A DNA stretch of 33,569 bases, taken from Alphaproteobacteria bacterium. GTDB taxonomy: Bacteria; Pseudomonadota; Alphaproteobacteria; Rhodobacterales; Rhodobacteraceae. Both the position numbers and the translations under genes were made by a program. The DNA is taken from positions 1-33,569 of the forward strand of contig RFGB01000257.1 in NCBI GenBank assembly GCA_003697125.1, read 5' to 3'. The notes below the pieces were generated by a model, which saw only the letters and a list, made by a program, of their open reading frames with translations, was not told where the DNA came from and did not search any database. Positions 11,723 to 32,704 of the stretch are shown here, one piece after another; positions within the stretch are counted from its first letter, which is position 1; every line of letters starts with the position of its first letter.

Positions 11723-11813
11723 CCGCCGCCGCCCGGGGCCGGTTCGGCCTTGCCTCGCGCCCCCGCCCGGCCGATTCTCCCCCCCGGTCGGGAATCCTGT
11801 GCGAGGATGGATC

Positions 11814-17076: not shown

Positions 17077-17985
17077 GTGAAGGTCGCAATCTTCGCCGGC
17101 GGCAAGGGGTCGCGCCTGATCGAGGAGACCCGGATCAGGCCCAAGCCCCTGGTCGAGATCGGCAACCGCCCGATCCTGTGGCACATCATGCAGCACTACT
17201 CGACATACGGGCACAACGAGTTCGTGCTCGCCCTGGGCTACATGGGCGACATGATCAAGAAGTACATCGCCGACCTGTGCCAGTATTCGGGAAACCTCAG
17301 GGTGGATTTCGCCAAGCGCGACCTGTACGGTCAGCCCAACGGCATCGATCCCGACGCGCCGCGCCGGCCCTGGATCGTCGACCTGATCGACACCGGAGAG
17401 GAGACGATGACCGGCGGGCGGCTGGCCAGGCTGGAACCCTATCTGGGCGGCGAGACCTTCATGCTGACCTATGGCGACGGCGTCTCGAATGTCGATCTCG
17501 ACGCCCTGCTCGCCTTCCACCGCAGCCATGGCAGGCTGGCAACCATGACGATGGTGCGTCCGCTGACCACCTTCGGCCATCTGGTGGTGCGCGAGGATGG
17601 TCTGGTGGAGGGGTTCGACGAGAAGCCCGAGACCGGGCAGGACTGGATCAATGGCGGCTTCTTCGTGCTGGAGCCGGGGGTGTTCGAGGCGGTCGCCGAG
17701 GTCAACGGCGATGACGTGATGTGGGAACAGGGGCCGCTGCCCAGGCTGATGGAGATGGGCCAGCTGATGGCCTATCGTCATACCGGATTCTGGTATTGCA
17801 TGGATCATCTGGCGGACAAGCGCCGGCTCGAGGAGATGTGGAAGAATGGCAACCGACCCTGGGCGACATGGGAAGCCGCGGCACGTTCTGGTGACGGGGC
17901 ATCTGGGCTACGTCGGGACGGTCGCGGTCCCAATATTGGCCGAGGCGGGCATCCGGGTGACTGGGTGCGATACCAATCTCTTTGA
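17077..17985 (+). CDS. rfbF: Glucose-1-phosphate cytidylyltransferase with C-terminal extension
   Basis: This enzyme makes CDP-glucose from glucose-1-phosphate and CTP. It has the nucleotidyltransferase signature [20 protein letters not shown] at its N-terminus, followed by [41 protein letters not shown] and [10 protein letters not shown], all characteristic of RfbF. Known RfbF proteins end near 257 residues with a W-x-x-G-x-x-PW motif; here [13 protein letters not shown] ends at about residue 266 and the frame runs on for 36 more residues. That tail overlaps the next gene by 140 bp in another frame and has no family resemblance, so the normal stop appears lost. The start has GGGAGGATGAC upstream. 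No CDP-glucose 4,6-dehydratase is evident unless the following SDR plays that role. Confidence 0.93.
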
Positions 17986-18922
17986 CGTCGCCGACTTCCC
18001 CCCCGCCGGCCCGGTCCCCCGGGTGCCCAATCTGGGCAAGGACATCCGCGATCTGACGGCCGCGGATCTGGAAGGGTTCGACGCCGTCATCCACCTTGCC
18101 GCCCTGTCCAACGATCCGCTGGGCCAGCTGCGCCCCGGCCTGACCCAGGAGATCAACCACGCCGGCACCGTGCATGTCGCGCGCTGCGCCAGGGAGGCCG
18201 GCGTGCCGCGCTTCGTCTTCGCCTCGTCATGCTCGAATTACGGGCGTGCCGGCGAGGCGATGGTGGACGAGACCGCGCAGCTGAACCCCCAGACCGATTA
18301 CGGCGTCTCCAAGGTCCTGGCCGAACGCGACCTCGCCCCCATGGCCGATGACCGCTTCTGCCCGGTCTTCCTGCGCTTCGCCACCGCCTATGGCATCTCC
18401 CCGCGCATGCGCTTCGACCTCGTGCTCAACAATCTCGTGGCCCATGCCCATACCTCGGGCCGCATCCTGATGATGTCCGACGGCACGCCCTGGCGGCCGA
18501 TCATCCATGTCGAGGACATGGCCCGCGCCTTCCTCGCCGCGCTGGACGCCGATGCCGATGCCGTGCGTGGCCAGGCCTTCAATGTCTGCCGCAGCGAGAA
18601 CAACTATCAGATCCGGGACCTGGCACGGATCGTGGCCGAGGTGGTGCCCGGCGCACGCATCGAATATGCCGCCGGTGCCGGGCCCGACACCCGGTCCTAT
18701 CGCGTCAGCTCGGCAAAGATCGAAAGGCTGATCCCCGCCTTCCGCCCGCAATGGGATGCCCGCCGCGGCGCCGAACAGATCTATGCCGCCGTGAAGGCGA
18801 TGGATCTGAAGCCGGAGGATTTCGAGGGGCGCAGATACAAGCGGCTGGCGCAGCTGCAGGCGCTGGTCGCGGAGGGCAGGCTGGACGACAGCTTCCGCCG
18901 GCGCGATCCGGTTCCGGCCTGA
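17846..18922 (+). CDS. NAD-dependent nucleotide-sugar epimerase/dehydratase (extended SDR)
   Basis: This 358-residue extended SDR has [11 protein letters not shown] (GxxGxxG at residues 18-24), the catalytic Ser128 region FASSCSNYG, and Tyr152/Lys156 (YGVSK). The downstream [18 protein letters not shown] is typical of nucleotide-sugar epimerases/dehydratases. The ATG at 17846 has GAGGAGA upstream. Because the Rossmann motif begins by residue 12, the overlap with the rfbF frame must be more than about 100 bp. Placement directly after rfbF suggests a CDP-linked substrate. It lacks the features I would expect of a classic CDP-glucose 4,6-dehydratase, so I leave the reaction open. The gene ends inside a symmetrical hairpin shared with the convergent small membrane protein gene. 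Confidence 0.88.
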
Positions 18923-19326: not shown

Positions 19327-20649
19327 ATGCGCATCGCGATGATCGGCACCGGCTATGTCGGCCTCGTCTCGGGGGTCTGCTTCTCGGATTTCGGCCATGA
19401 GGTGGTCTGCGTCGACAGGCTGGCCGACAAGGTCGCCGCGCTGCAGGCCGGCCGGGTGCCGATCTACGAGCCGGGACTCGAGGCGATGATGGCGCGCAAT
19501 GTCGCGGCGGGCAGGCTGTCCTTCACCACCGATCTGGCCGGCGCGGTGGCGGGGGCCGATGCGGTGTTCATCGCCGTCGGCACCCCTGCCCGCCGCGGCG
19601 ACGGCCATGCCGATCTGCAGCATGTCCATGCCGCCGCGCGCGAGATCGCCCCCGCGCTCGGCGGCTATACGGTGGTGGTGATCAAGTCGACCGTGCCGGT
19701 GGGCACCAACCGCGCCGTCGCCCGGATCATCCGCGAGACGGCGCCGGGGGCCGATTTCGACATCGCCTCCAATCCCGAATTCCTGCGCGAGGGGGCGGCG
19801 ATCGAGGATTTCATGCGCCCCGACCGGGTGGTGGTCGGCGCCGACAGCGACCGCGCCCGTGCGGTGATGGCGGCGATCTACCGCCCGCTGTCGCTGCGCG
19901 ACGCGCCGGTGGTGTTCATGGACATCGAATCGGCCGAGCTGACGAAATACGCCGCCAACGCCTTCCTGGCCATGAAGATCACCTTCATCAACGAGATCGC
20001 CGCCCTGTGCGAGCGGGTCGGCGCCGATGTCCAGCAGGTCGCCCGCGGCATCGGGCTCGACCGGCGCATCGGCCCGAAATTCCTCCATCCCGGCCCCGGC
20101 TATGGCGGATCCTGCTTTCCCAAGGACACCCGGGCGCTGGCCCGCATCGGGCAGGAGCATGCCAGCGCCCTGAAGCTGGTGGAAAAGACCATCCAGGTCA
20201 ATGACGAGATCAAGCGCGCGATGGTCGAGAAGATCCTCGACCTGTGCGGGGGCAGCGTGAACGGCCGGCGCATCGCCGTCTTCGGCGTGACCTTCAAGCC
20301 CGAGACCGACGACATGCGCGAGGCCCCCGCGCTGACCATCGTCCCCGCCCTGGTTGGGGGCGGGGCCGAGGTGCGGGTGGTCGATCCCCAGGGCCGCAAG
20401 GAGGGCGAGGCGCTGCTGCCGGGGGTGATCTGGCACGAGGATCCCTATGCCGCGGCCCGGGATGCGGATGCGGTGGTGATCCTGACCGAGTGGAACGCCT
20501 TCCGCGCCCTCGACCTCGACCGGCTTGCGCGCGGGATGCGCAAGCCCCGCATGGCCGATCTGCGCAATGTCTACGACCCCGCCATGGCCCGGGCGGCGGG
20601 CTTCGCCTATGTCGGGGTGGGCCGCGGGATCAGCCCCGCATCTGCTTGA
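19327..20649 (+). CDS. ugd: UDP-glucose 6-dehydrogenase
   Basis: This 440-residue enzyme begins MRIAMIGTGYVG (NAD-binding GxGxxG at residues 7-12). It carries SNPEFLREG (148-156), the substrate-loop lysine region ELTKYAANAFLA, and the catalytic Cys263 in GYGGSCFPKD, with the C-terminal FGVTFKPETDDMREAP. These are diagnostic of UDP-glucose 6-dehydrogenase, which makes UDP-glucuronate by two NAD-dependent oxidations. ATG 19327 follows GGGGGGCAGGGC. It is the second dehydrogenase of this family in the window; the one at 6471 is of the GDP-mannose type. The 3' end overlaps the convergent AMP-ligase gene by 20 bp. Confidence 0.94.
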   Translation: MRIAMIGTGYVGLVSGVCFSDFGHEVVCVDRLADKVAALQAGRVPIYEPGLEAMMARNVAAGRLSFTTDLAGAVAGADAVFIAVGTPARRGDGHADLQHVHAAAREIAPALGGYTVVVIKSTVPVGTNRAVARIIRETAPGADFDIASNPEFLREGAAIEDFMRPDRVVVGADSDRARAVMAAIYRPLSLRDAPVVFMDIESAELTKYAANAFLAMKITFINEIAALCERVGADVQQVARGIGLDRRIGPKFLHPGPGYGGSCFPKDTRALARIGQEHASALKLVEKTIQVNDEIKRAMVEKILDLCGGSVNGRRIAVFGVTFKPETDDMREAPALTIVPALVGGGAEVRVVDPQGRKEGEALLPGVIWHEDPYAAARDADAVVILTEWNAFRALDLDRLARGMRKPRMADLRNVYDPAMARAAGFAYVGVGRGISPASA

Positions 20650-21982
20650 ACCGCTCGGTGGCCAGCGGCCCGTCCACCAGGATGATCTTCTGCGGGATCT
20701 TGTAGGGTTCCAGCACCCCGGCAAGGCCCCGGCGGATCGCCACGCGCAGCGCGGCCGCGTCGGCGGCCGGATCGGCCGGGCGGATGCGCGCGCAGACGCA
20801 GGCGCCCAGCATCGGATGCGGCACGCCATGCACCGCGGCATCGGCGATGCCGGGCAGGGCGCGCAGCGCCGCCTCCACCTCGGCCGGAAACACCTTCTGC
20901 CCGCCGACATTGATGATGTCGCTCTCGCGCCCCAGAAACCGGATCATCGATCCGCAGGGGGAAACCTCGACCCGGTCGCCGGTCATGTGGAAACCGTCTT
21001 CGGTGAAGGGCGAGGGGGCGTTCAGATAGCCCAGCATCGCGGTGGGGGTGCGGATTTCCAGAAGCCCGCCGCGGACCCGCCATTCGGTGCCCGCGCCGCC
21101 GATCGTCAGCCAGCGCGAGCGGTCCCCCGCGCTGCGCGACCGCAGCGCCCCGAGTTCCGAGGTGCCGTATTTCTGCACGATGCGCACCCCGGGAAAGGCC
21201 GCCGCGACCCGTTCCAGCAGCGGCTGGGGCATCATCTCGGCCCCGTAGGTGATGATCTTCAGCGCGGAAAGGTCCAGCCCCTCATGCGCGCCCGACAGCA
21301 GCAGCATGTTGAGGAAGGACGGCGCGGTGGGCAGGACCTCGACCCGATGCGCGGCGACGCAGCGCATCACCGTGGCGGGATCGCGGGCGGGCGGGCAGAC
21401 GAGGGTCGAGGCATTGGCCAGGGCGTAGAGCAGGGTGTCGATCCCCGCGATGTGATCGAACAGCAGGAAGGCCAGCGTGCGCAGATCCTTGCCCGGGGCG
21501 TGGAACTTCGACAGCAGCCGCCCCGCGTCATGCACCGCCCCCTTCGGGGTTCCGCTGGTGCCCGAGGTGAAGATCACCAGCCCCGGCGCGGCGCGGCGGC
21601 GCAGTTCGGCATAGAGCGGGTGGGCCGATCCGCCGGGGCCCGGCGCGATGTCCCCCGCCGCGACCGGTCCCGAGACGATCCAGGAGACATCGCCCACCGC
21701 GGCGAACTCCGCCGCCCGCGCCATGCTGGTCGGGGCGACGGGGAGCGCCACCGCGCCGATCTCCCACAACGCCAGCAGCCAGGCGGCGGCATCGGCGCCG
21801 AAATCGCCCCGCAGCTGCACCGCATCGCCCGCCCCCACCCCGGCCGCGGCCAGCGCGGCGCGGGCCCGGGCGATCCGCCCCAGGAACTGCCCGCGGCCGA
21901 CCGCGGCGCCATCGGCCTCGATGAAGGCGGTTCCCTCGCCGGCATCGCGCAGCCGCTCCAGCAGGAAGGCGATCGCCGACAT
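20630..21982 (-). CDS. AMP-forming acyl ligase (ANL superfamily)
   Basis: This 450-residue adenylating enzyme has the P-loop-like motif VIFTSGTSGTPKGAV (about residues 136-150), YGTSELGALR, an FHMTGD motif, FLGRESDIINVGGQKVFP at the hinge, and Lys446 near the C-terminus (RFKQMRG). It should activate a carboxylic acid as acyl-AMP and pass it to CoA or a carrier protein. It is about 50-100 residues shorter than typical acyl-CoA synthetases. The start at 21982 lies four bases after the SDR stop. It is last in a ten-gene minus-strand operon that also encodes an acyl carrier protein, so ACP loading is the natural inference. The acid substrate is unknown. Confidence 0.9.
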   Translation of the reverse strand: MSAIAFLLERLRDAGEGTAFIEADGAAVGRGQFLGRIARARAALAAAGVGAGDAVQLRGDFGADAAAWLLALWEIGAVALPVAPTSMARAAEFAAVGDVSWIVSGPVAAGDIAPGPGGSAHPLYAELRRRAAPGLVIFTSGTSGTPKGAVHDAGRLLSKFHAPGKDLRTLAFLLFDHIAGIDTLLYALANASTLVCPPARDPATVMRCVAAHRVEVLPTAPSFLNMLLLSGAHEGLDLSALKIITYGAEMMPQPLLERVAAAFPGVRIVQKYGTSELGALRSRSAGDRSRWLTIGGAGTEWRVRGGLLEIRTPTAMLGYLNAPSPFTEDGFHMTGDRVEVSPCGSMIRFLGRESDIINVGGQKVFPAEVEAALRALPGIADAAVHGVPHPMLGACVCARIRPADPAADAAALRVAIRRGLAGVLEPYKIPQKIILVDGPLATERFKQMRG

Positions 21983-21986
21983 CGCT

Positions 21987-22691
21987 TCAGATCCCGCCCA
22001 GATAGATGGTCTGCCCGGTGATGAAGTCCGATTCGGGCCGCAGGAAGAAGTCGCAGACATTCAGGACATCCTCCATGGTGCCGTAACGCGGGATCGCCTG
22101 GCGCGCGATCAGCGCCCGCATCTTCTCCTCGGGAACGCTGCCCACCAGATCGGTGGGCACCGGGGTCGGCCCCACCGCATTGACCGTGATCCCGAAGGGG
22201 GCGAGCTCGCGCGCCAGCACCTCGGTCAGCGAGACGACGGCGGCCTTCGATGCGGCATAGACCGCCTCGCCCTCCAGCTTCAGCGGCGTGGCCACGGTGG
22301 CGAAGTTGACGATCCGGCCATGCCGGTTGCGCGCCATCAGCTTCGCCGCCTCGCGGCAGAAATAGAAGCTGCCGAAGACATTGGTGGCGAAGATGCGCCG
22401 CAGGGTCGCGCCCGGGGTCAGCAGGGCGTGGTTCATCGCGGCGATGCCGGCATTGTTGAGCAGCGCGTCGACCCGGCCATGGCTGCGGGCGATGGCGCGC
22501 ATCATCCGCGTCACTGCCGGTTCGTCGGCGACGTCGAGTTCGTGATGGGCATAGGCCGGATGATCGGGCCCGCCGGCGCCGCGGGCGCAGCCGATGACCT
22601 GCCAGCCGCGTTCGAGGAAGCGTTCGGCCAGGAACAGGCCGATGCCCTTGCGGGTTCCGGTGATCACGATCACCCGGGGCTGGTCGGCCAT
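21987..22691 (-). CDS. Short-chain dehydrogenase/reductase, FabG-like
   Basis: This 234-residue classical SDR has VITGTRKGIG (residues 9-18), LLNNAGIAAM (77-86) and the active-site YAASK (Tyr145, Lys149). The usual serine position reads NFATVAT, so a threonine (Thr132) seems to replace it. The C-terminal FFLRPESDFITGQTIYLGG is typical of FabG-like enzymes. Lying between the ACP and the AMP ligase, with a 3-bp gap on one side and 4 bp on the other, it may reduce an ACP-bound beta-keto group. A sugar reductase role is also possible. Confidence 0.87.
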   Translation of the reverse strand: MADQPRVIVITGTRKGIGLFLAERFLERGWQVIGCARGAGGPDHPAYAHHELDVADEPAVTRMMRAIARSHGRVDALLNNAGIAAMNHALLTPGATLRRIFATNVFGSFYFCREAAKLMARNRHGRIVNFATVATPLKLEGEAVYAASKAAVVSLTEVLARELAPFGITVNAVGPTPVPTDLVGSVPEEKMRALIARQAIPRYGTMEDVLNVCDFFLRPESDFITGQTIYLGGI

Positions 22692-22694
22692 GGC

Positions 22695-23003
22695 TCAGCC
22701 CGCCTGCGCGCGCGCCATCTCGACGGCATATTCGGCCAGGGCGCGCAGGCTGCGATAGGGCGACCTGCGGCGCGACATCGCCGCCTCGGAGGCGAGCACG
22801 AGATCGAGGCCGGTGGCGTCGGACAGATGCGCCTCGGCCGCCATCACCAGATTGACCAGGCCGACGCTGTCGACCACCCCGCCATCGCCGAACAGGACCG
22901 CATCGGGATCGTCGGGGATCCGGCTGCCCTCGGGCAGGGAAAGGTTGATCTCGGCCACCGCGCCGCGGATGGCGGCAAGGGCGGTTTCGGCATCAAGGCT
23001 CAT
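22695..23003 (-). CDS. Acyl carrier protein-like
   Basis: This is a small acidic protein of 102 residues with the phosphopantetheine attachment signature GGVVDSVGLVNLV, Ser46 being the likely modified residue. It has helical segments on either side. The length and motif fit stand-alone carrier proteins, with a longer C-terminal basic tail (MSRRRSPYRS, about 76-85) than FabG-pathway ACPs. ATG 23003 has GGAG seven bases upstream. The neighbours are an acetyltransferase (20 bp upstream) and an SDR plus AMP ligase downstream, the usual company of dedicated carrier proteins that shuttle one specific acyl group. A longer reading upstream would overlap the acetyltransferase and is not needed. Confidence 0.85.
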   Translation of the reverse strand: MSLDAETALAAIRGAVAEINLSLPEGSRIPDDPDAVLFGDGGVVDSVGLVNLVMAAEAHLSDATGLDLVLASEAAMSRRRSPYRSLRALAEYAVEMARAQAG

Positions 23004-23023
23004 CGGGAAACTCCGTGCTGAAA

Positions 23024-23599
23024 TCAGGCGGGGGGAACCTCGCGCGGGATGACGCGGGGCGGGGGGACGAACAGGGTGCGGCCGGCCGGGACATCGGCCG
23101 AGATCACGCAGTTCGGGCCGATCTGGACATCGTCGCCGATGGTGATGTTGCCGATGATCGCCGTCCCCGGGCCGAAGCTGACGCGGTTGCCGATCACCGG
23201 GCCCCTGCCGGGGATCCATTCATTGGCGATGCCGAAGGTGACGCCCTGGCGCAGCACGCAGTCGTCGCCGATGGTGGCATGGTCGTGGATGACGATGCCG
23301 TGCTGGTGCCCGATCTCCAGCCGGCGGCCGATCCGCGCCGTGCGGCGCAGCTCGATCCCGTAGAAATTGCGGCAGAAGCGGAAGCCGACGGCATAGAGGA
23401 TGTCGAAGGGCCAGCGCCAGGGCCGGGGCAGGGTGGTGGCCCAGACCCCGATGCGATGGATGATCAGGGCCTGCAGCCCGGGGCGGGACCATTCGCCGCG
23501 ATGGGTGCGGATGTCCTCGGCCAGGATTGCGCGCAGGCCCATGGCGCGGATCAGTGCGGCGCCGGTCAGCGCCGGCGCGGGCGTGGCGTCCGCATCCAT
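23024..23599 (-). CDS. Hexapeptide-repeat acetyltransferase, serine acetyltransferase-like
   Basis: This protein of about 191 residues has a helical N-terminus followed by a left-handed beta-helix of hexapeptide repeats (IGRRLEIGHQHGIVIHDHATIG, then VIGNRVSFGPGTAIIGNITIG). The catalytic-type histidine region GHQHGIVIHDHATIG and the C-terminal DVPAGRTLFVPPPRVI are like CysE/WbbJ O-acetyltransferases. It would acetylate a sugar hydroxyl or amino group from acetyl-CoA. I chose ATG 23599 because GAGGAG lies six bases upstream; ATG 23617 would overlap the preceding gene by 8 bp. It sits between the SAF oxidoreductase and the carrier protein in the same operon. Confidence 0.86.
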   Translation of the reverse strand: MDADATPAPALTGAALIRAMGLRAILAEDIRTHRGEWSRPGLQALIIHRIGVWATTLPRPWRWPFDILYAVGFRFCRNFYGIELRRTARIGRRLEIGHQHGIVIHDHATIGDDCVLRQGVTFGIANEWIPGRGPVIGNRVSFGPGTAIIGNITIGDDVQIGPNCVISADVPAGRTLFVPPPRVIPREVPPA

Positions 23600-23609
23600 T
23601 CCCTTCTCC

Positions 23610-24911
23610 TCAGACATCGCCGCCGGCGGGAAAACGGGCGGCCTGCTCGGCCCGCAGCCGGTCGATCAGCCGGCCCGGGGGCAGTTCGACATCGGCATAG
23701 GTCAGGGGGGTGTCCCGGGGGATGTCGCGCTTCAGCCGGCAGCCCTCGGCCACCCCCATGGGCAGCAGCCCCTCGCGCGCCGCCACATCGGCATTCTCCG
23801 CCTCGCCATAGGTCATGTACCAGCCGATGCCGTCAAGGATCTCGCCCGCGCGCAGATCGGTCTTGGCCCGCGCGATCACCTCGACCCGCGGCGCGCCCAG
23901 CGGGGCCATGACGCAGTCGCCGAACAGCGCGACGCGCGCGGCCGAGACCGGCACCTCGAAATGGCACAGGTGATAGGGGGTGTAGAAGCAATAGAGCGGC
24001 CCCTCCCCCAGCTTGTAGAGGTTGAGATAGTGGCGCTGGCCGGGATCCTCGGTGGTGGCCAGGACGAAGACCCCGGGGCCGGGGCGGGCGCCCACGACGT
24101 AATCGACGATGCCGCCCATGGATTTCAGCATGTCGATGTCATAGGCCGTCACCAGCTCGTCGACATGGCCGCGGTGATCGGCCCCGATCATGCCGCGCCT
24201 GGGGACGCGGAAGCCGGCGGCGTTGGCGACGATGGCCTGTTCGAACGAGATCTTGGTGCCGTCGGCGAAGCTTGTCACCATGTGGGGCTTCTGGCCCCAG
24301 CGTTCGGCGAAGGCCTTCTGGGTGGTGGGGGTGCGGTAGGGGTCCTGCAGCCCCTTGATGTTGCCGGCCACCAGCGGGGTCAGGCCCATGCCCCGCACGA
24401 AGCGGATCAGGTTCATCTGCACGCCTGGCTGGTCGCCGTCGCAGCCCGAGAGGATGACCCCCGCCCGGTCGGCCATGACCTTCAGGATCGGTCCGACGGT
24501 GCCGTCGAGTTCGGCATTCATCAGCACCACATGGTTGCCATGGGCGATCGCCTCGGTCACCACCCGGGCGCCGAACTCGATCGCCCCGGTCACCTCGATC
24601 AGCACGTCGACATTCTCGGCCCGGGCCAGCAGCATCGCATCCTCGGTGACCGCCCGCCGGCCGGCGCGGATCGCATCCTCCAGCGCCGACTGGGTCGAGA
24701 CCTCGACCGCATCATCCGCCCCCGCCTCCGCATAGGCGCGGCGCGCCCCGGCGATGTTGCGGTTCGCGATCGCCACCAGCGCCATGCCCGGGACATGGTT
24801 GAGGATCTGGCTGGCGATGCCGCGGCCCATGAAGCCGGCCCCGATCATGCCGACCCGGACGGGGCGGCCCTCCTCGGCCCGGCGGCGCAGCGCGCTGTCG
24901 ACGATGATCAT
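23610..24911 (-). CDS. NAD(P)-dependent oxidoreductase with C-terminal SAF domain
   Basis: This 433-residue protein has an N-terminal Rossmann fold with GMIGAGFMGRG (GxGxxG at residues 24-29), resembling the NAD-binding half of homoserine dehydrogenase. Its central region contains ILSGCDGDQPGVQMNLIRFV and KGLQDPYRTPTTQKAFAE. The C-terminal stretch (about 340-433; ARAKTDLRAGEILDGIGWYM and DIPRDTPLTYADVELP) resembles a SAF domain. Proteins of this architecture are found in surface-sugar loci, but their reactions are largely unassigned. The ATG overlaps the stop of the RmlC-family gene as ATGA. The substrate may be a keto-sugar or small acid used to build the substituent; this is inference. Confidence 0.85.
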   Translation of the reverse strand: MIIVDSALRRRAEEGRPVRVGMIGAGFMGRGIASQILNHVPGMALVAIANRNIAGARRAYAEAGADDAVEVSTQSALEDAIRAGRRAVTEDAMLLARAENVDVLIEVTGAIEFGARVVTEAIAHGNHVVLMNAELDGTVGPILKVMADRAGVILSGCDGDQPGVQMNLIRFVRGMGLTPLVAGNIKGLQDPYRTPTTQKAFAERWGQKPHMVTSFADGTKISFEQAIVANAAGFRVPRRGMIGADHRGHVDELVTAYDIDMLKSMGGIVDYVVGARPGPGVFVLATTEDPGQRHYLNLYKLGEGPLYCFYTPYHLCHFEVPVSAARVALFGDCVMAPLGAPRVEVIARAKTDLRAGEILDGIGWYMTYGEAENADVAAREGLLPMGVAEGCRLKRDIPRDTPLTYADVELPPGRLIDRLRAEQAARFPAGGDV

Positions 24912-25444
24912 GCCCGCTCTCCGATCAGCGGCCAGGCCGCATCCTTTTCCGAGATCACCTCCACCGCCACCGGCCAGTCGATCCCCAGCGCCGGATCGTC
25001 CCAGCGCAGCCCGCCCTCCGCCCCGGGGGTGTAGAACTCGCCCACCTGGTAGATCACCTCGGCCCCGTCGGTGAGGGTGATGTAGCCATGGGCGAACATC
25101 TCGGGCACATAGAGCGCGCGGCGGTTCGCGGCCGACAGCTCCACGCCGACATGCTGCAGATAGGTGGGGCTTTCCGGGCGCAGGTCCACGATCACGTCAT
25201 GGATCGCCCCGGCGGTGCAGCGCACCAGCTTGGTCTCGGCGGCGGGGGGGCGCTGGAAATGCAGGCCCCGCAGCGTTCCCCGGCGGTGGTTGAAGGACAG
25301 GTTGGTCTGGGCCACCATCGGCTTCAGGCCGTGGGCCTCGAATTCCCGCGCGCAGAAGGTGCGGGCGAAGAAGCCGCGGTGGTCGCGCCGCTCCTCCAGG
25401 TCGATGATGAAGGCACCCTTCAGATGCGTCTCGGTGAAGATCAT
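24908..25444 (-). CDS. dTDP-4-dehydrorhamnose 3,5-epimerase family (RmlC-like cupin)
   Basis: This 178-residue cupin has RmlC landmarks: RGFFARTF, FNHRRGTLRGLHFQ with the catalytic His62, VDLRPESPTY, VPEMFAHGYITL and Tyr132 in IYQVGEFY. It epimerises C3 and/or C5 of a 4-keto-6-deoxy nucleotide sugar. No rmlA, rmlB or rmlD is in the window, whereas rfbF and an SDR are present, so the substrate may be CDP-linked rather than dTDP-linked, or the other rml genes lie elsewhere. Both junctions are ATGA overlaps, with the acyltransferase gene before and the SAF gene after. Confidence 0.9.
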   Translation of the reverse strand: MIFTETHLKGAFIIDLEERRDHRGFFARTFCAREFEAHGLKPMVAQTNLSFNHRRGTLRGLHFQRPPAAETKLVRCTAGAIHDVIVDLRPESPTYLQHVGVELSAANRRALYVPEMFAHGYITLTDGAEVIYQVGEFYTPGAEGGLRWDDPALGIDWPVAVEVISEKDAAWPLIGERA

Positions 25445-26460
25445 CGCGATCGGTCCGTTCCGGTTGCCGCCAGCGGCCGGGGACGGGGGGCGGACACGGC
25501 CGCAAGCACCATGCGCCGCAGCGCCTCGGCCGGCCGGTCGACGGCGAGATAGAAGAGGATCGCGCCCAGGGGGGCGAGGAGGAGGAGGAAGGCGAGCTTC
25601 TCCGGGTCGGTGAAGTCCCGGCCCAGAAGCTGCCGCCCGATCTGGATGGCGGGATAATGCACCAGATACAGGGCATAGGACAGGTTGCCCAGATGCCGGT
25701 CGATCGCCGGGCTGTCCTGGCGGACATTCCAGGCGACGAAGGGCAGCAGGATCAGCGCCCAGCCCATGGCGAACAGCCTGTCGAGGGCGAAGTCGCCGCT
25801 GCCCCAGATCACGAAGGGATGCAGTGCCGGCACCGCCCAGGCGATCACCCCCGCCAGCACGAACGCCCCCGCCGACAGCGCCGCCATCCGGCCCGAGGCG
25901 CGCAGCCCCAGCTGATGGATCGCCATGCCGGCCAGGAACAGCGGCAGATACGCGATGGCAAGCCGCAGCCCCGCCCCGAAATCCAGCGCCCAGCCCAGCA
26001 CCGTCAGCGCCGCCAGCCCCGCGGCCAGCGCCGCCGGCGGCAGATGGCGCAGCGCCAGCCACAGGGCGGGCAGCAGCAGGTAGAACTGCATCTCGATGTC
26101 CAGCGACCAGGCGATGCCGATCGGGTCGCGCCCATGGGTCGCCACCCCCAGAAGCGGCAGCGCGATCCAGGGCACGCGATCCCCGCCCCCGACCAGGAGC
26201 CGCGCCGCCAGCACCGCCAGCAGCCCCGCCACGGCGAAGGGCAGCCAGATGCGCAGCAGGCGCGCCGTCCAGAAGGTCAGCAGCGGCCAGGGGGCGTGGC
26301 GGTAATGCTGGTCATACATCCGCCCCACCCAGTAGCCGGACAGGGCGAAGAAGACCATCACCGCCGGGCTGCCGATCTGCAGCCGCGACAGATGCTCGAC
26401 CACCACCGCCATGGCCAGGATCAGGCGGAAGAGCCCGGGGCCCTGCAGCATGCCCGCCAT
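25441..26460 (-). CDS. Acyltransferase 3 family membrane protein
   Basis: This 339-residue polytopic protein has about nine or ten hydrophobic segments and features of the acyltransferase-3 (OafA/NodX-like) family: an early VVVEHLSR, where the His is the likely catalytic residue, FFALSGYWVGR, FWTARLLRIWLP, WSLDIEMQFYLLLP and LGNLSYALYLVHYP. Such enzymes O-acylate periplasmic or lipid-linked glycans using acyl groups supplied from the cytoplasm. In this operon with a carrier protein and ligase, it is the best candidate to place the acyl group on the polysaccharide. The start at 26460 is 12 bp from the GMC stop; ATG 26451 is an alternative. Confidence 0.9.
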   Translation of the reverse strand: MAGMLQGPGLFRLILAMAVVVEHLSRLQIGSPAVMVFFALSGYWVGRMYDQHYRHAPWPLLTFWTARLLRIWLPFAVAGLLAVLAARLLVGGGDRVPWIALPLLGVATHGRDPIGIAWSLDIEMQFYLLLPALWLALRHLPPAALAAGLAALTVLGWALDFGAGLRLAIAYLPLFLAGMAIHQLGLRASGRMAALSAGAFVLAGVIAWAVPALHPFVIWGSGDFALDRLFAMGWALILLPFVAWNVRQDSPAIDRHLGNLSYALYLVHYPAIQIGRQLLGRDFTDPEKLAFLLLLAPLGAILFYLAVDRPAEALRRMVLAAVSAPRPRPLAATGTDRSR

Positions 26461-26472
26461 CCCCGCCCCCCT

Positions 26473-27921
26473 TCAGCGCGCCAGCCGCGTGGCCAGGTGA
26501 TCGGCCAGCCGCAGCGACAGCTGCACGATGGTCAGCGTGGGGTTGGCATAGCCCCCCGACGGGAAGACCGAGGAGCCGGCGAGATGGAGATTGCCCAGCC
26601 CGTGCACCCTCAGCTGGGCATCGACCACCGAATCCGCGGGGCTGTTGCCCATCCGCGTGCCGCCCATGTGGTGCCAGCTGGCCATCACCCGGTCGACCGG
26701 GATCGGGCGGCGATCGTCCAGCACCCAGTCGAGCAGCCGCAGCCGGCCGATCCCCGCGGCCGCGAAGCCTTCGGCCAGCGCCATCACCGCGCGCGTCACC
26801 CCCGCCCGGTCGGCCGCCGACTTGCGCCAGTGCAGCACGACCCGCGGCAGGCCCAGCCGGTCGCGCGCCTCTCCCAGCGCCACGCGGTTGGCCGCATCGG
26901 GCAGCTGTTCGCACTGCGCGTGCACCCGCGCGCCGCAGACCAGGTTCTTGCCGAACGCGTCCATCACCGCCTGGCCGAGCGCGGGGGCCGCGCACATCAG
27001 GTCGGCGATCAGGGCCCGGGTCTGGTCGGGATAGGCCATCACGTCGATGTCGAAGGACAGGTTCAGCCCCCCGCTGCGCTCCAGCGCCGCGGGCGAGAGG
27101 GCGAAGAAGGCCTGATCGTTCACGAACAGCCCGTCCGGGTCGCGCCAGACCACCGCCTCGGCGACCGAGAAGGTCGGATGCTCCATCCAGTAGCGGCCGA
27201 GCGCGGCGGGCGGGATCAGCGCCTGTCCGTGGGTGGCATTGGCCCACAGCAGCAGGCGGGAATTCTCGATCCCCCCCAGGGCCAGGACGAAGTCGTCCGC
27301 CTCCACCTGCCAGCGCCGCTGCGCGCCGTCGCCGGCCTCGGTCACCACTTCCAGCGCGCGGATTCCCCCCGCCCCGGGCACCAGGTTGACCACCGCGCTG
27401 CGCAGGCACAGCCGCAGATGCGGATCCTCGGCGCAGAAGGCGCGATACTTCTCGCCGAAGCGCACCGGGGGGCTGACATGGAAGACGGTGCGCAGCAGAT
27501 CGCTTCCCACCGGCCGGTCCGCGAAGCGGTCCGGAATCTCCAGGATCTCCGCGGCCGCGGCCAGGAAGGGATCGAGATCGGCGCGGCCGATCGGCCAGCC
27601 TGGGCGGGGCGGATCGGCGCGGGGCAGGAAGTCGTGGGCATCGAGCGGGCGGCAATAGCCCGCCCAGTGTCCCGAGGTTCCCCCGAAGCAGCGCAGCCGG
27701 GCGAGGTCGAGCTCGAAATAGGGATCCCCCTCGACCCGGCCGGCATAGAGCTGCTGGCTGGCATCGTCGGGCTCGGGGCCGCCCGCCTCCAGCAGCAGGA
27801 CATCGATGCGGCGCAGGGCCAGCGCCCGGGCCAGGGTCATCCCCGCGGGGCCGGAACCCGCGACGCAGACCCGGGCGCGGACGACATGGCCTTCGGGAAA
27901 GGTTGATGCATCGAGGATCAT
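26473..27921 (-). CDS. GMC-family FAD-dependent oxidoreductase
   Basis: This 482-residue flavoprotein has FAD-binding VAGSGPAGMTLA near residues 20-31 (ending in the acidic LLLEAGG), RCFGGTSGHWAGYCRPL, and the catalytic C-terminus with HHMGGTRMGN (His418) and SSVFPSGGYANPTLTI (Asn460). It has no signal peptide. It lacks the four-cysteine cluster of the other GMC protein (2267-3928), so the two are not recent duplicates. Its ATG shares one base with the stop of a 44-residue Tat-like peptide (TGATG), and no good ribosome-binding site precedes it, so translation is probably coupled. It may oxidise an alcohol on a sugar or lipid-linked precursor, possibly in the periplasm. Confidence 0.88.
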   Translation of the reverse strand: MILDASTFPEGHVVRARVCVAGSGPAGMTLARALALRRIDVLLLEAGGPEPDDASQQLYAGRVEGDPYFELDLARLRCFGGTSGHWAGYCRPLDAHDFLPRADPPRPGWPIGRADLDPFLAAAAEILEIPDRFADRPVGSDLLRTVFHVSPPVRFGEKYRAFCAEDPHLRLCLRSAVVNLVPGAGGIRALEVVTEAGDGAQRRWQVEADDFVLALGGIENSRLLLWANATHGQALIPPAALGRYWMEHPTFSVAEAVVWRDPDGLFVNDQAFFALSPAALERSGGLNLSFDIDVMAYPDQTRALIADLMCAAPALGQAVMDAFGKNLVCGARVHAQCEQLPDAANRVALGEARDRLGLPRVVLHWRKSAADRAGVTRAVMALAEGFAAAGIGRLRLLDWVLDDRRPIPVDRVMASWHHMGGTRMGNSPADSVVDAQLRVHGLGNLHLAGSSVFPSGGYANPTLTIVQLSLRLADHLATRLAR

Positions 27922-28055
27922 CAGCGATCGGCCCGGTCGAGCACCCAGCGGCGGCGGATGCGGAACAGGCGGGGCAGGGCGATGCGGGCCACGAGCCCCG
28001 CCGCGGCCAGCCCGGCCAGAAGCCGCCGCCGGGTGGGTCCGGCCGCCTCAGCCAT
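27921..28055 (-). CDS. 44-residue Tat-like microprotein coupled to the GMC gene
   Basis: The tiny protein begins MAEAAGPTRRRLLAGLAAAG, a twin-arginine-like signal (TRRRLLAG) with a moderately hydrophobic core, then ends in a basic tail (RLFRIRRRWVLDRADR). No clear cleavage site is seen, so it could be a membrane anchor. The start at 28055 overlaps the end of the glycosyltransferase gene by 8 bp and has a G-rich tract upstream. Its stop overlaps the GMC start by one base (TGATG). The tight fit on both sides argues for a real gene. It parallels the 67-residue Tat peptide at 4658-4861. A role as minimal Tat partner for the signal-less GMC enzyme is inferred. Chance occurrence of a short frame is the main alternative. 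Confidence 0.5.
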   Translation of the reverse strand: MAEAAGPTRRRLLAGLAAAGLVARIALPRLFRIRRRWVLDRADR

Positions 28056-29208
28056 GCCGCCCCCCCGCACAGGCCGCGCCCGGCCGCGCCGCGGGCGCGG
28101 CCTCCAGCATCGCCGCCAGCCCGGCAAGCTGTCCGGCCCGCCGCTCCATCCCCGCCGTCGGCGGCAGGCCGGCGATGTCGAGGATCGCCTGCCAGCGGTG
28201 CAGGTGGTCATGGCGGGTCAGCGCGTTCAGCATGTTGGCCCGGCGCGCCGCGGCGATCCGCTCGGGCTGGGCATCCAGCGCATCGATGATCTCCCCCGCC
28301 TCGGCGCAGTCATAGGGCAGGGGGATGACGGCGTCGGGCCAGCCCAGATGGGCGCGGAATGCCGGGCTGTCGATCACGTCGCCCAGAAGGATCGCGCCCC
28401 CGGCGATGCCCTCGATGTAGCGCAGGCCGAATTCCTCCTGGCGGCCGCGCTCCTGCCGTTCGGCCACCTTGGCCATGTGCGAGATCAGATAGCGGCTGCG
28501 CTTCATCCGCTGGGCGTAGAGCCAGCGATGCTCGGCGGTGTCATGGGCGAAGATGCCGCCGCGGATGGAGGTGAATTCGTAATGCCAGCCCCGCCGGCGG
28601 GCATGGTCCAGAAGCGCGGCATGGGTGCGCGGCGCGATGCGGCTGATGTTGTTGACGTGGATGCAGCGTTCGGGCGCGGATGGCAGCGGGCTGAACAGGA
28701 TCGTGTCCACCCCCCAGGGCAGATAGCTGACCGGCACCGACAGGCGTTCCTGCAGCACCGGGGTGGTCGCCGCCATGGCGCAGAAGACGTGATCGAAGCG
28801 ATCGAGGATGTCGAGCAGCCGCCCCGCGCGGGGGATGTCGTCGATCCACAGCTCCTGCAGCCAGCAGATCGCCCGGCCCGCGCGCCGGCGCCAGTCCGGC
28901 ACGGCGTCCAGCGCGACGAGATCGCGCGGCACGGCGGCGTAGAAGAAGAACAGGTCGACCCCCCCCGCCGGGACCGATGCCGCCAGCCCCGAGGGCACCA
29001 GCCCCTGCAGCCCCCCCAGCCGCGCCAGCCGGTTGCGCATCCGCAGCCGCAGGGCCGAGGCCGGGCCGGGCCGGGGTGCGATGATCGTCGCCGCCTCGAA
29101 CGCGCCGGCGATCAGATCCTCGAATTCATGGATGCCGCAGCGGGACAGATGCGTCGACAGGTTGCGCAGTGACAGGAGACCGATTCGACGGGCGGCTTCG
29201 GCGCTCAC
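28048..29208 (-). CDS. Glycosyltransferase, CgeB/GT1-like
   Basis: This protein of about 386 residues has CgeB-type glycosyltransferase features: ICWLQELWIDDIPRAG, DHVFCAMAATTPVLQE, VSYLPWGVDTILFSP, and a donor-half region EFGLRYIEGIAGGAILLGD followed by IPLPYDCAEAGEIIDAL. I chose a GTG start at 29208 because AGGGGA lies six bases upstream; the frame is open to 29445, but that part is arginine/proline-rich and non-conserved and would overlap the gene at 29373. It opens the ten-gene minus-strand operon. It should transfer a sugar in the cytoplasm; donor and acceptor are unknown. Confidence 0.78.
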   Translation of the reverse strand: MSAEAARRIGLLSLRNLSTHLSRCGIHEFEDLIAGAFEAATIIAPRPGPASALRLRMRNRLARLGGLQGLVPSGLAASVPAGGVDLFFFYAAVPRDLVALDAVPDWRRRAGRAICWLQELWIDDIPRAGRLLDILDRFDHVFCAMAATTPVLQERLSVPVSYLPWGVDTILFSPLPSAPERCIHVNNISRIAPRTHAALLDHARRRGWHYEFTSIRGGIFAHDTAEHRWLYAQRMKRSRYLISHMAKVAERQERGRQEEFGLRYIEGIAGGAILLGDVIDSPAFRAHLGWPDAVIPLPYDCAEAGEIIDALDAQPERIAAARRANMLNALTRHDHLHRWQAILDIAGLPPTAGMERRAGQLAGLAAMLEAAPAARPGAACAGGRHG

Positions 29209-30962: not shown

Positions 30963-32546
30963 ATGACGACCGGTGTGATGGCGCGGGCGGCTGGCGGGGT
31001 TCCGGGGCTGTCCGTGGCGGGGATCTTCTGGCTTGTGGTGGCCCTTGCCGGGGCGGCGGCGGTGTTCTGGGAGGGGCTCGTCTCCCTCGGCATCGCATGG
31101 TCCACCCCCGAATACAGCCACGGGCCGCTGATCCCGCTCGTCTCCTTCTGGCTCTACCTGCGCGAGATGCGCTTCGTGCCGCCCGCCGCCCGGCCGGTGA
31201 CCGACCGCTGGCCGGGGGTGGCGCTGGCGCTTCTGGCGCTGGCCATCGGTCTGGCCGGGCATGTCGTGCAGATTCCCGACATCGTCACCTATGGCTTCAT
31301 CCTGTGGGTGGGGGGGCTGATCCTGACCGCCTATGGCCTGCGGCGCGGGATCATCTTCTGGCCGTCGGTGGTGCATCTGGTGTTCATGCTGCCGCTGCCC
31401 AACTTCCTCTACTGGCCGCTGTCGATCCAGCTGCAGCTGATCTCCTCGGAAATCGGCGTCTGGGTGATCCGGGCGCTGGGAATCCCCGTCCTGCTCGACG
31501 GCAATGTCATCGATCTCGGCCTCTACAAGCTGCAGGTGGCCGAGGCCTGCTCGGGCCTGCGCTACCTCTTCCCGATCCTCTCCTTCTCCTGGATCACCGC
31601 GCTGCTCTATCGCGGGCCGTTCTGGCACCGGGCGCTGCTGTTCCTGTCGGCCGCGCCGATCACGGTGCTGATGAACAGCTTCCGCATCGGCATGATCGGG
31701 GTTCTGGTCGATTCCTACGGGATCGCCCAGGCGGAAGGCTTCCTGCATGCCTTCGAGGGCTGGATCATCTTCCTGGCCTGTGTCGCCATCCTCCTGCTGA
31801 TGGCGGCGGTCCTGCAGCGGCTCGGCCCCCGGCCCAGGCCGCTCTCCCAGGCGCTCGATCTCGACTTCTCGGGACTGCACCTGCAGCTTGCCCGGCTGCG
31901 CGGGGTCGTCCCCTCGCCCGCGCTCATCACCGTCGCGCTGGCCGGCGCCGGCCTGGGGCTGGCGATGCATCTCGCCCCCCCGCGCGAGGCGATGGCGGTG
32001 GCGCGCGAACCGCTGGTGCTGTTCCCCCGCCTGGTGGGGGAATGGAGCGGGCAGACGATCCGGCTCGATCCCGAGGTGGAGCGGGTGCTGGCCGCGGACG
32101 ACTATCTGTCGGCGCGCTATCTGGGCGGGGACGGGGCGGTCGACCTGTTCATCGCCTGGTATCGCGCCCAGGCGGGGGGGGCGGGCATCCATTCGCCCGA
32201 GGTCTGCCTGCCCACCGGTGGGTGGGAGGTGTCGGCCTGGCGGCAGGAGACGGTCTCCCTGCCCGGCGGGCACGCGGTTCCGGTCAATCGCGCGGTGATC
32301 GCGCGCGGTCTGGAACGGCAGCTGGTCTGGTACTGGTTCGAGGGGCGGGGCCGGCGCGAGACGTCCGACTACATGGCCAAGATCGCGGTGGTCTGGGATT
32401 CGGCCACCACCGGGCGGTCGGACGGCGCGCTCGTCCGCCTCGTCACCCCCATCGCCCCGGGCGAGGACGAGGCCGCGGCCGCGGCGCGGCTGCGCCGCTT
32501 CCTGGCCGGGATCCTGCCCGATCTGCCCCGCTTCGTGCCCGAATGA
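30963..32546 (+). CDS. xrtD: Exosortase D (VPLPA-CTERM type) fused to EpsI domain
   Basis: This 527-residue protein has an N-terminal exosortase domain of about eight membrane helices. It carries the catalytic triad Cys196 (EACSGLRYL), Arg241 (MNSFRIGMIG) and His262 (HAFEGW). A soluble EpsI-type domain follows at about residues 330-527 (with GIHSPEVCLPTGGWEV). This fusion is the form described for the VPLPA-CTERM-specific exosortase of Rhodobacterales. It cleaves a C-terminal sorting signal from exported proteins and attaches them at the cell surface, and it is usually encoded in an EPS locus. ATG 30963 has GGGGAG eight bases upstream. No VPLPA-CTERM substrate is encoded in the window. The adjacent ATPase at 32705 is the usual neighbour of exosortases. 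Confidence 0.9.
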   Translation: MTTGVMARAAGGVPGLSVAGIFWLVVALAGAAAVFWEGLVSLGIAWSTPEYSHGPLIPLVSFWLYLREMRFVPPAARPVTDRWPGVALALLALAIGLAGHVVQIPDIVTYGFILWVGGLILTAYGLRRGIIFWPSVVHLVFMLPLPNFLYWPLSIQLQLISSEIGVWVIRALGIPVLLDGNVIDLGLYKLQVAEACSGLRYLFPILSFSWITALLYRGPFWHRALLFLSAAPITVLMNSFRIGMIGVLVDSYGIAQAEGFLHAFEGWIIFLACVAILLLMAAVLQRLGPRPRPLSQALDLDFSGLHLQLARLRGVVPSPALITVALAGAGLGLAMHLAPPREAMAVAREPLVLFPRLVGEWSGQTIRLDPEVERVLAADDYLSARYLGGDGAVDLFIAWYRAQAGGAGIHSPEVCLPTGGWEVSAWRQETVSLPGGHAVPVNRAVIARGLERQLVWYWFEGRGRRETSDYMAKIAVVWDSATTGRSDGALVRLVTPIAPGEDEAAAAARLRRFLAGILPDLPRFVPE

Positions 32547-32704
32547 TCCGCCCCGTGATCCCGGTCACGGCAATCTGCGGAAAAATCATCATTAACGGCC
32601 CGCCGGGCCATGCCTGCCGGGTCGCAAGAAGGGGGGGCATCGATTATATTGCGCTGCGGGGTCCGCGTGAGAGCCCGCGCGGCGGGCGAGATTGATCGGG
32701 TATC

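What the first reader, a model, noticed from the sequence alone, without database searches (positions are those of the whole stretch)
20630..29208. Ten-gene operon combining a carrier protein, AMP ligase, SAF oxidoreductase, RmlC cupin and acyltransferases
Ten minus-strand genes from 29208 to 20630 are joined by 1-8 bp overlaps or gaps of at most 20 bp. The order is CgeB-like glycosyltransferase, Tat microprotein, GMC oxidoreductase, acyltransferase-3, RmlC-like epimerase, SAF oxidoreductase, hexapeptide acetyltransferase, ACP, SDR and AMP ligase. A dedicated ACP with its own ligase and reductase is not part of standard EPS pathways. This looks like a route that builds an acyl or other carboxylic acid group on a carrier protein and attaches it to a modified 6-deoxy sugar. 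The substituent itself cannot be read from sequence.
Basis: partly seen in the sequence, partly recalled or inferred. Interest (0 to 1): 0.72.

Follow-up and report, generated by a model that had tools for sequence, protein, structure and literature searches.

The report
Plasmid operon making acyl-decorated branched sugar
A plasmid-type gene cluster, probably from a Paracoccaceae bacterium, joins a kit that loads an acid onto its own carrier protein to a sugar-nucleotide pathway ending in an unusual reductase, and that reductase is a testable candidate for the unidentified enzyme that shrinks the sugar ring in streptose-type sugars.

Summary
The ten-gene operon is real and mostly named correctly. 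It combines two modules that also occur apart. Module B is hexapeptide acyltransferase–ACP–SDR–AMP ligase, seen in seven clusters. Of 17 ACP–SDR–ligase sets found, 12 have a hexapeptide, GNAT or MBOAT acyltransferase next to or near them, so an acyl-ACP donor is likely. The SAF protein belongs to the DXR-II/DLO family, lacks two DXR-II substrate-anchoring residues, and lies within 1.3 kb of RmlC in 20 of 20 related loci examined. The SDR is not a 4,6-dehydratase; its best solved match is 6vo6, recalled as Cj1427, a sugar C4-dehydrogenase. Four of four Deinococcus copies add an L-2-hydroxyglutarate oxidase, which fits. CDP-glucose is probably oxidised at C4, epimerised and reduced by SAF, keeping its 6-hydroxyl; '6-deoxy sugar' is not supported. 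Most novel reading: SAF performs the unassigned ring contraction of streptose-type sugars. Published DLO1 members include Streptomyces griseus and Coxiella burnetii, the two known makers. Function is inferred; nothing biochemical was tested.

The parts
28048..29208 (-). CgeB-like glycosyltransferase (GTG start)
   Evidence: PF13524 22.3 bits, below cut-off 25; Halovulum homologue 50%; L066 homologue 38%, 28.8 bits, over the cut-off
27921..28055 (-). 44-aa Tat-type microprotein (TRRRLLAG ... WVLDRADR)
   Evidence: Sequence; no family hit; similar short frames with a GWVL[DH] stretch near the end directly before GMC in L036 and L066
26473..27921 (-). GMC-type FAD oxidoreductase
   Evidence: GMC_oxred_C 90.7 bits; 56% in L036, 36% in L066
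25441..26460 (-). Membrane acyltransferase family 3
   Evidence: PF01757 87.3 bits
24908..25444 (-). RmlC-type 3,5-epimerase (module A)
   Evidence: TIGR01221 181.7 bits over cut-off; H62 and Y132 kept
23610..24911 (-). SAF oxidoreductase, DXR-II-like (DLO1-type) (module A)
   Evidence: DRL_cat 182.9 bits; 3upl E 5e-72; RmlC-linked clade 100/99
23024..23599 (-). Hexapeptide acyltransferase, CysE/WcaB-like (module B)
   Evidence: Hexapep 46.6 bits; serine acetyltransferases as nearest solved
22695..23003 (-). Acyl carrier protein, family without a Pfam hit (module B)
   Evidence: DS motif and SEAAMSRxRSPYR motif; AlphaFold model; fold search, weak
21987..22691 (-). SDR, FabG-like, Thr where FabG has the catalytic Ser (position recalled) (module B)
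   Evidence: adh_short_C2 158.2 bits; 63-82% identical in 7 other clusters; alignment
20630..21982 (-). AMP-forming ligase, 450 aa (module B)
   Evidence: AMP-binding 116.8 bits; tree
17077..17985 (+).
   Evidence: TIGR02623 299.7 bits against cut-off 300.25; 84% in Halovulum
17846..18922 (+).
   Evidence: 6vo6 E 2e-35, next 1e-17; no dehydratase motif

Best explanation
The operon makes and decorates an unusual sugar for a plasmid-borne exopolysaccharide. Module A: RfbF makes CDP-glucose; the SDR at 17846-18922 oxidises C4 without dehydration; RmlC epimerises C3/C5; the SAF (DLO1-type) enzyme reduces the 4-keto sugar with NAD(P)H, either plainly or, as the most interesting option, with a ring-contracting alpha-ketol rearrangement like that of DXR-II. 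Module B: the AMP ligase loads a small acid on the ACP, the SDR reduces the tethered acyl group, and the hexapeptide acyltransferase moves it to the sugar. CgeB-like and GT2 enzymes would transfer the sugar. Shown: gene content, module conservation, residue patterns, phylogeny. Inferred: every catalytic step, the substrates, and the acceptor.
For: RmlC lies in 20 of 20 SAF-clade loci examined (14 of these measured at 6-1215 bp) and was seen in 0 of 14 other SAF/DRL relatives, 13 of which have under 2 kb of flank; the SAF clade is supported 100/99. Cj1427-like SDR in 12 of 20 plus a copy cut by the contig end in L035; RfbG with TTDK instead in 3 of 20, never both; neither in the 4 Rhizobium loci. 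LhgO-like gene in 7 of the 13 SDR-type loci and 0 of the other 7, annotated lhgO in 4 of 4 Deinococcus. The genome holds two other RmlC matches over the cut-off, one at a contig edge, and RmlA- and RmlB-like frames on C12 (read by eye), so this RmlC is not needed to explain rhamnose. An acyltransferase is next to or near the ACP-SDR-ligase set in 12 of 17 loci; 3 are followed by a large synthase gene, annotated polyketide synthase in 2; 2 are undetermined. Among 390 order genomes the 3 with a strong ACP match (148-157 bits) are all among the 6 with a SAF-clade gene.
Against: Two further order genomes, G003 and G028, have a weaker ACP match (44-45 bits) with ligase and SDR beside it but no SAF match at E 1e-60, so module B relatives do without module A. 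The two non-own co-occurring genomes (G094, G328) are sisters in both trees and so are not two independent events, and in both the modules lie on different contigs. Module B stands next to a response regulator and a transglutaminase gene, not glycan genes, in Cereibacter changlensis. The ACP profile also finds places without ligase and SDR: 9 of 14 opened. RfbF is just under its cut-off and RfbF above 200 bits lies in only 10 of the 20 SAF loci. No LhgO was found in the window; the best match in the genome is below cut-off (185.7 against 299 bits). In Rhizobium (4 loci opened of 7 listed) the RmlC-SAF pair stands without RfbF, SDR, RfbG or RmlA/B homologues within the 8-11 kb held on each side. 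The hexapeptide protein could simply use acetyl-CoA.
Confidence: 0.5

Rival explanations
1. Plain reduction: SAF reduces C4 of the epimerised CDP-4-keto sugar without rearrangement, replacing RmlD, and yields an ordinary CDP-L-hexose.
For: RmlC-SAF adjacency fits successive steps; the family resembles homoserine dehydrogenases; K193 and T229 of DXR-II are lost; four DLO proteins tested earlier fail to replace DXR (PMC3847144 passage).
Against: Does not explain why a DXR-II-like enzyme was recruited instead of an RmlD/SDR, nor the DLO1 entries from S. griseus and C. burnetii.
Confidence: 0.4
2. Priming-cassette logic: ligase, SDR and ACP make an omega-hydroxyacyl-ACP (3-hydroxypropionyl or 4-hydroxybutyryl) from malonyl- or succinyl-CoA, as MupQ/MupS/MacpD do, and the hexapeptide enzyme attaches it.
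For: The ligase groups with the pTML1 ligase and the other triad ligases, away from 10 ligases of its own genome (99/94); ligase-SDR-ACP order on pTML1; MupQ/MupS/MacpD make 3HP from malonyl-CoA and the thiomarinol side chain is primed from 4-hydroxybutanoyl (PMC10098928 passages; succinyl-CoA as its source is recalled); malonyl-CoA synthetase tops the solved list by a hair.
Against: The ACP does not match the pTML1 ACP; the SDR is no closer to the pTML1 SDR (about 30%) than to SDRs of its own genome (up to 36%); relations inside the ligase group are unresolved, and that group also holds one stray long-branch row, L077.
Confidence: 0.25
3. RmlC here serves dTDP-rhamnose and the operon is a loose collection of EPS genes.
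For: RmlC is over the rmlC cut-off; RmlA- and RmlB-like frames exist on contig C12.
Against: Two other RmlC matches over cut-off exist; RmlC accompanies SAF across Alphaproteobacteria, Deinococcota and Bacteroidota; the order is conserved in Halovulum.
Confidence: 0.12
4. The SAF protein is a second DXR of the MEP pathway.
For: DRL_cat match and B. abortus DXR-II (3upl) as nearest solved protein.
Against: K193->L in 15 of 15 and T229->I or M in 15 of 15 clade members, against K and T in 12 of 12 other relatives compared; a partial DXP_reductoisom match over the cut-off suggests an ordinary DXR elsewhere in the genome (28.5 bits, 26 of 129 positions).
Confidence: 0.03

Closest known systems
Dihydrohydroxystreptose/streptose pathway as proposed in PMC9095892 (abstract, passages of the introduction, structure section and discussion read)
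   Same: Expected steps: C4 oxidation of NDP-glucose, RmlC-type epimerase, ring-contracting reductase; matching candidate genes sit here together.
   Different: CDP instead of TDP; DLO1 instead of the suggested RmlD paralogue; no product known; Met123 of CBU1838, said to make room for the 6-hydroxyl, corresponds to Tyr121 here.
DXR-II/DLO1 oxidoreductases (PMC3847144; abstract, passages and part 1 of section 5 read)
   Same: DRL_cat and SAF domains; Ile at position 229 as stated for DLO1.
   Different: Own RmlC-linked clade with DGDQPG and GNIKGLQD stretches.
Cj1427-type GDP-heptose C4-dehydrogenase (6vo6; name, activity and 2-oxoglutarate recycling recalled)
   Same: ISPRMR stretch, best solved match to the SDR; lhgO partner in Deinococcus fits recycling through L-2-hydroxyglutarate.
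   Different: Presumed substrate CDP-glucose.
Viosamine island acp/vioR/vioS/vioB (PMC3927599, passages)
   Same: ACP, reductase and acyltransferase proposed to build and attach an acyl group to a nucleotide sugar.
   Different: Uses KAS III; the word ligase does not occur in the text; flagellin glycan of Pseudomonas.
MupQ/MupS/MacpD cassette (PMC10098928, passages)
   Same: Ligase, SDR and ACP trio; related ligase.
   Different: Feeds a polyketide synthase; ACP and SDR not specially related (pTML1 proteins).

Membership tests
DXR-II (MEP pathway) | Lys191, Lys193 and Thr229 | tested here: not met
   K191 kept in 15/15, K193->L in 15/15, T229->I in 14/15 and M in 1/15. phmmer places the gap near K191 differently, but Ile stands at 229 in both alignments.
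DLO1 | Leu, Ile or Val at position 229 | tested here: met
   Ile221; rule from PMC3847144.
DLO1 | Position inside the published DLO1 clade | not tested
   The published DLO1 sequences were not at hand.
RmlC 3,5-epimerase | Family score and His/Tyr pair | tested here: met
   181.7 against 155.75 bits; H62, Y132, the pair named in PMC9095892.
CDP-glucose 4,6-dehydratase RfbG | T-T/S-D-K dehydratase motif (motif recalled) | tested here: not met
   SSCSNYG in the window, SSC in 12 of 12 homologues where the stretch was read; TTDK in the 3 RfbG-type loci.
Cj1427-like C4-dehydrogenase | Closest homology and shared ISPRMR stretch | tested here: met
   6vo6 E 2e-35, next 1e-17; that 6vo6 is Cj1427 is recalled.
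Cj1427-like C4-dehydrogenase | C4 oxidation with cofactor recycling | not testable with these tools
   Needs an assay.
Streptose/DHHS pathway | C4 oxidase plus RmlC-type epimerase | tested here: met
   By homology only.
Streptose/DHHS pathway | RmlD-paralogue ring-contraction enzyme | tested here: inconclusive
   No window protein scanned has RmlD as its best family; weak RmlD matches fall on the SDR at 17846. Frames at 2-2143 and 32696-33568 were not scanned, nor the rest of the genome.
Acyl carrier protein | DS motif at the start of helix II of a four-helix fold | tested here: met
   fold search weak, E 0.26 for the best ACP.
Acyl carrier protein | 4'-phosphopantetheine attachment | not testable with these tools
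   Needs mass spectrometry.
MupQ/MupS/MacpD cassette | Ligase of the same clade | tested here: inconclusive
   Same side of a 99/94 branch as the pTML1 ligase, inner order open.
MupQ/MupS/MacpD cassette | Specially related ACP and SDR | tested here: not met
   Against the pTML1 proteins: no ACP match; SDR about 30%.

The most novel reading that the evidence does not exclude
RfbF, C4-dehydrogenase, RmlC and the SAF/DLO1 enzyme form a CDP-linked route to a dihydrohydroxystreptose-like branched sugar, and to dihydrostreptose where RfbG replaces the dehydrogenase. The DLO1 enzyme is the missing ring-contracting reductoisomerase, and module B then acylates the sugar from a dedicated carrier protein. 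Streptose-type sugars would then occur in polysaccharides of Paracoccaceae, Rhizobium, Deinococcus and Persicobacter, not only in S. griseus and C. burnetii.
Probability: 0.25. Interest if true: 0.85.

Novelty: new variant of a known kind. Interest (0 to 1): 0.58.

Why it matters
[quoted passage not shown] This locus and its relatives place one candidate for each near RmlC in environmental bacteria, so the question becomes an ordinary four-enzyme assay. It also gives a function to test for DLO1, called uncharacterised in PMC3847144, and defines a small mobile ACP acylation cassette that appears with several kinds of acyltransferase.

Tried and rejected
Rejected: SAF as a MEP-pathway DXR; SDR 17846-18922 as a 4,6-dehydratase; RmlC as the genome's only rhamnose epimerase; membership in the mupirocin cassette. 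Weak or empty: the ACP found nothing in solved sequences or plasmids. The ACP profile is not specific: of its 15 non-own places in the phylum search I opened 14; ligase and SDR homologues lie beside 4 (L070, L071, L108, L110) and about 5 kb away in L077, while 9 (L072-L076, L078-L080, L111) have none. Literature: searches found no paper and the listing of one search showed nothing relevant; the listing of one search showed no paper placing a SAF oxidoreductase in the streptomycin pathway. This is no proof of absence from print. The RmlC Met123 test was negative. The family-level search gave the same three ACP genomes, 3 of 394 at E 1e-12, and adds no independent case.

Rows dropped or added: LIG tree without L037, L040, L046, L060, L061 (duplicates or fragments); SAF tree without L014-L018, L030, L096 (duplicates or fragments) and own-window copies; one search used 12 of the 14 non-clade relatives (L012 and L021, the two longest branches, left out). 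Of 15 plasmid records at 50% identity or more to SAF 12 were opened. In the count of 17 ACP-SDR-ligase sets L037 and L068 are one genome and count once; L040 (ligase cut at the contig edge) and L077 (genes far apart) are not counted; in L070 the ligase lies about 5 kb from ACP and SDR; in L041 an unassigned frame stands between MBOAT and ACP; L109's neighbour was not examined; L110 showed no acyltransferase, but its gene calls are poor. In L032 the large gene after the trio is annotated only as an SDR family protein. The GNAT in L033 is just under its cut-off (20.3 against 20.7 bits), but a hexapeptide protein is present there too. Corrected on checking: the SDR of module B is compared in 7, not 8, other clusters, and L035 carries a cut copy of the module A SDR.

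Full report
WHAT IS THERE. The window lies on contig C68, from its first base, of a 3.5 Mb assembly in 315 contigs. One genome of the same family, G328, is Cereibacter changlensis by its contig length (73775), so the host is probably a Paracoccaceae. The window carries genes for replication initiator RPA and ParA- and ParB-like proteins (10658-14010), so the cluster sits on a plasmid-type replicon. Around the operon are ManC, two UDP-glucose/GDP-mannose dehydrogenases, two GT2 enzymes, a UbiA-HAD protein and exosortase XrtD (621.7 bits against 400). The ten minus-strand genes have the order and spacing described, and most annotations hold.

TWO MODULES. tblastn of the window proteins against fetched loci shows that the operon is made of separable units. 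Halovulum marinum (L036) has the whole block plus the partners at 17077-18922. Amylibacter (L035, a 4.8 kb contig) has RmlC-SAF-HEX-ACP-SDR-ligase and a cut copy of the partner SDR. A Rhodobacterales MAG (L039) has both modules in another arrangement. Caulobacterales (L038) shows only HEX-ACP-SDR-ligase in the 21 kb held. In Cereibacter changlensis (L037, L068, G328) and G094 the two modules lie on different contigs. Among 390 order genomes, SAF-clade genes occur in 6 and strong ACP matches in 3, all 3 within the 6. A hypergeometric count gives 2e-6, or 1e-4 without the window's own genome, but G094 and G328 are sisters in both trees, so this overstates the evidence. Two more genomes of the 390, G003 and G028, have a weaker ACP match with a ligase and SDR beside it and no SAF match at E 1e-60, so relatives of module B do without module A.

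MODULE B, THE ACYL KIT. The ACP family has an invariant DS and a second motif SEAAMSRxRSPYR (consensus). AlphaFold gives a confident four-helix model, and the three best solved matches are ACPs, though with E 0.26-0.45 none is significant by itself. The SDR is the most conserved member, 63-82% in seven other clusters, with Thr in place of the usual catalytic Ser (the meaning of that position is recalled). The ligases of ACP sets lie on one side of a 99/94 branch, away from ten ligases of the same genome. Seventeen distinct ACP-SDR-ligase sets were seen. Twelve have an acyltransferase next to or near them: nine a hexapeptide protein (window, L035-L039, L069, L071, L033), an MBOAT in a Phycisphaera MAG (L041, one frame away), and a GNAT in L070 (where the ligase lies about 5 kb off) and L108, the last beside a Polysacc_synt_2 epimerase/dehydratase and a polysaccharide exporter. 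Three are followed by a large synthase gene, annotated polyketide synthase in L031 and L034 and SDR family protein in L032. Two are undetermined (L109, L110). Swapping of the acyltransferase around a constant trio is the best evidence that the trio makes an acyl-ACP donor. What acid it loads cannot be read; the mupirocin-type answer (3-hydroxypropionyl, PMC10098928 passages) is one option, and neither ACP nor SDR is specially related to the pTML1 proteins.

MODULE A, THE SUGAR. The SAF protein matches DRL_cat and 3upl, B. abortus DXR-II (identity of the entry recalled, its partner 3upy named in PMC3847144). Relatives at 50% identity or more form a clade (100/99), and RmlC is present in 20 of 20 loci opened (14 of 14, 6-1215 bp away). 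Of 15 such plasmid records, 12 were opened; of 5 non-own order genomes. In 14 other SAF/DRL relatives no RmlC was seen, but 13 of these have under 2 kb of flank. Clade members share DGDQPG and a GNIKGLQD-like stretch. Of the three residues that anchor fosmidomycin in DXR-II (PMC3847144 passages), K191 is kept while K193 and T229 are lost in 15 of 15; 12 of 12 other relatives compared keep all three. Ile at 229 is what that paper reports for DLO1. In the 20 loci RfbF above 200 bits occurs in 10 (a weak match in one more, L066), the SDR in 12 plus the cut copy in L035, a TTDK-type RfbG in 3 and never together with the SDR; the 4 Rhizobium loci have neither, and no RmlA/B homologue. The SDR's best solved match is 6vo6 at E 2e-35, the next 1e-17, with a shared ISPRMR stretch. 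I recall 6vo6 as Cj1427, which oxidises C4 of GDP-heptose and recycles its NADH with 2-oxoglutarate, giving L-2-hydroxyglutarate; two papers I tried by id were not held. In 4 of 4 Deinococcus plasmids an annotated L-2-hydroxyglutarate oxidase gene stands between rfbF and the SDR, and LhgO-like genes occur in 7 of 13 SDR-type loci and 0 of the 7 others. That fits a C4-oxidase and leaves the 6-hydroxyl in place. No LhgO was found in the window, and the best in the genome is below cut-off.

WHY RING CONTRACTION IS WORTH TESTING. PMC9095892 (abstract, passages of the introduction, structure section and discussion) expects dihydrohydroxystreptose to arise by C4 oxidation of NDP-glucose, RmlC-type epimerisation and a streptose-synthase-like step. 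It shows that StrM and CBU1838 are double epimerases and says the other two enzymes are unidentified, favouring an RmlD paralogue for the contraction. Table 1 of PMC3847144 (section 5 part 1) lists Streptomyces griseus NBRC 13350 and five Coxiella burnetii strains under DLO1. DXR chemistry, an alpha-ketol-type rearrangement followed by aldehyde reduction, is the same class of reaction (established knowledge, recalled). Against this: DLO1 also lists many organisms not known for streptose, the S. griseus and Coxiella gene positions were not checked, StrL is the usual synthase candidate (recalled), the Met123 feature of CBU1838 is absent here (Tyr121), and plain C4 reduction explains the genes as well. 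I give ring contraction 0.25.

COMPARISON AND NOVELTY. ACP-based acylation of nucleotide sugars has precedents: loss of vioR removes modified viosamine from flagellin glycans (PMC3927599 passages), and Enterobacteriaceae islands carry ACP, CoA ligase and FabG (PMC4875605 passage). So module B is a variant of a known kind, with its own ACP family and mobile layout. Module A is a CDP-sugar route with an uncharacterised terminal enzyme. I found no paper describing either combination in the listings of searches, which cover only an open-access library.

VERDICT. Observation confirmed; interpretation partly supported; new variant of a known kind; the value lies in two precise, cheap tests.

Noticed in passing
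window 17846-17985; L036 13791-13930: RfbF carries a C-terminal extension of about 45 aa that reads 140 bp into the SDR gene in another frame; the same overlap, with 84% identity to nearly the end, occurs in Halovulum, whereas the annotated RfbF proteins of Deinococcus, Gemmobacter and Paracoccus have 256-258 residues.
   Followed up: partly
window 27921-28055; L036 about 2600-2766; L066 about 7610-7830: A Tat-type microprotein with a WVL[DH] stretch near its end directly precedes the GMC oxidoreductase in all three, suggesting a small partner or export helper of this GMC type.
   Followed up: partly
L033 6716-12372 (Rhizobium sp. T136 plasmid): ACP, GNAT-like, SDR, ligase, hexapeptide protein and a CmlS-like halogenase in a row: possibly a halogenated acyl group built on an ACP.
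   Followed up: no
L041 5402-11320 (Phycisphaera MAG): GDSL-like (below cut-off), MBOAT, a short frame, ACP, SDR, ligase: reminiscent of the Dlt system (recalled) with an added reductase.
   Followed up: no
L070 2256-10272 (G527): GNAT, ACP, SDR, metallo-beta-lactamase fold, KAS III, second ACP and ligase in one cluster.
   Followed up: no
window 30963-32543: Exosortase XrtD (VPLPA-CTERM type) beside the EPS genes; a 54% homologue also neighbours the SAF module in L063.
   Followed up: no
window 2267-4727: A second GMC oxidoreductase with an SDR on the opposite strand, not explained here.
   Followed up: no
L064, L006, L121: Where RfbG replaces the C4-dehydrogenase-like SDR, the SAF proteins of L064 and L006 pair in the tree (93/97; L121 was not in that tree), suggesting substrate-matched evolution.
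   Followed up: partly
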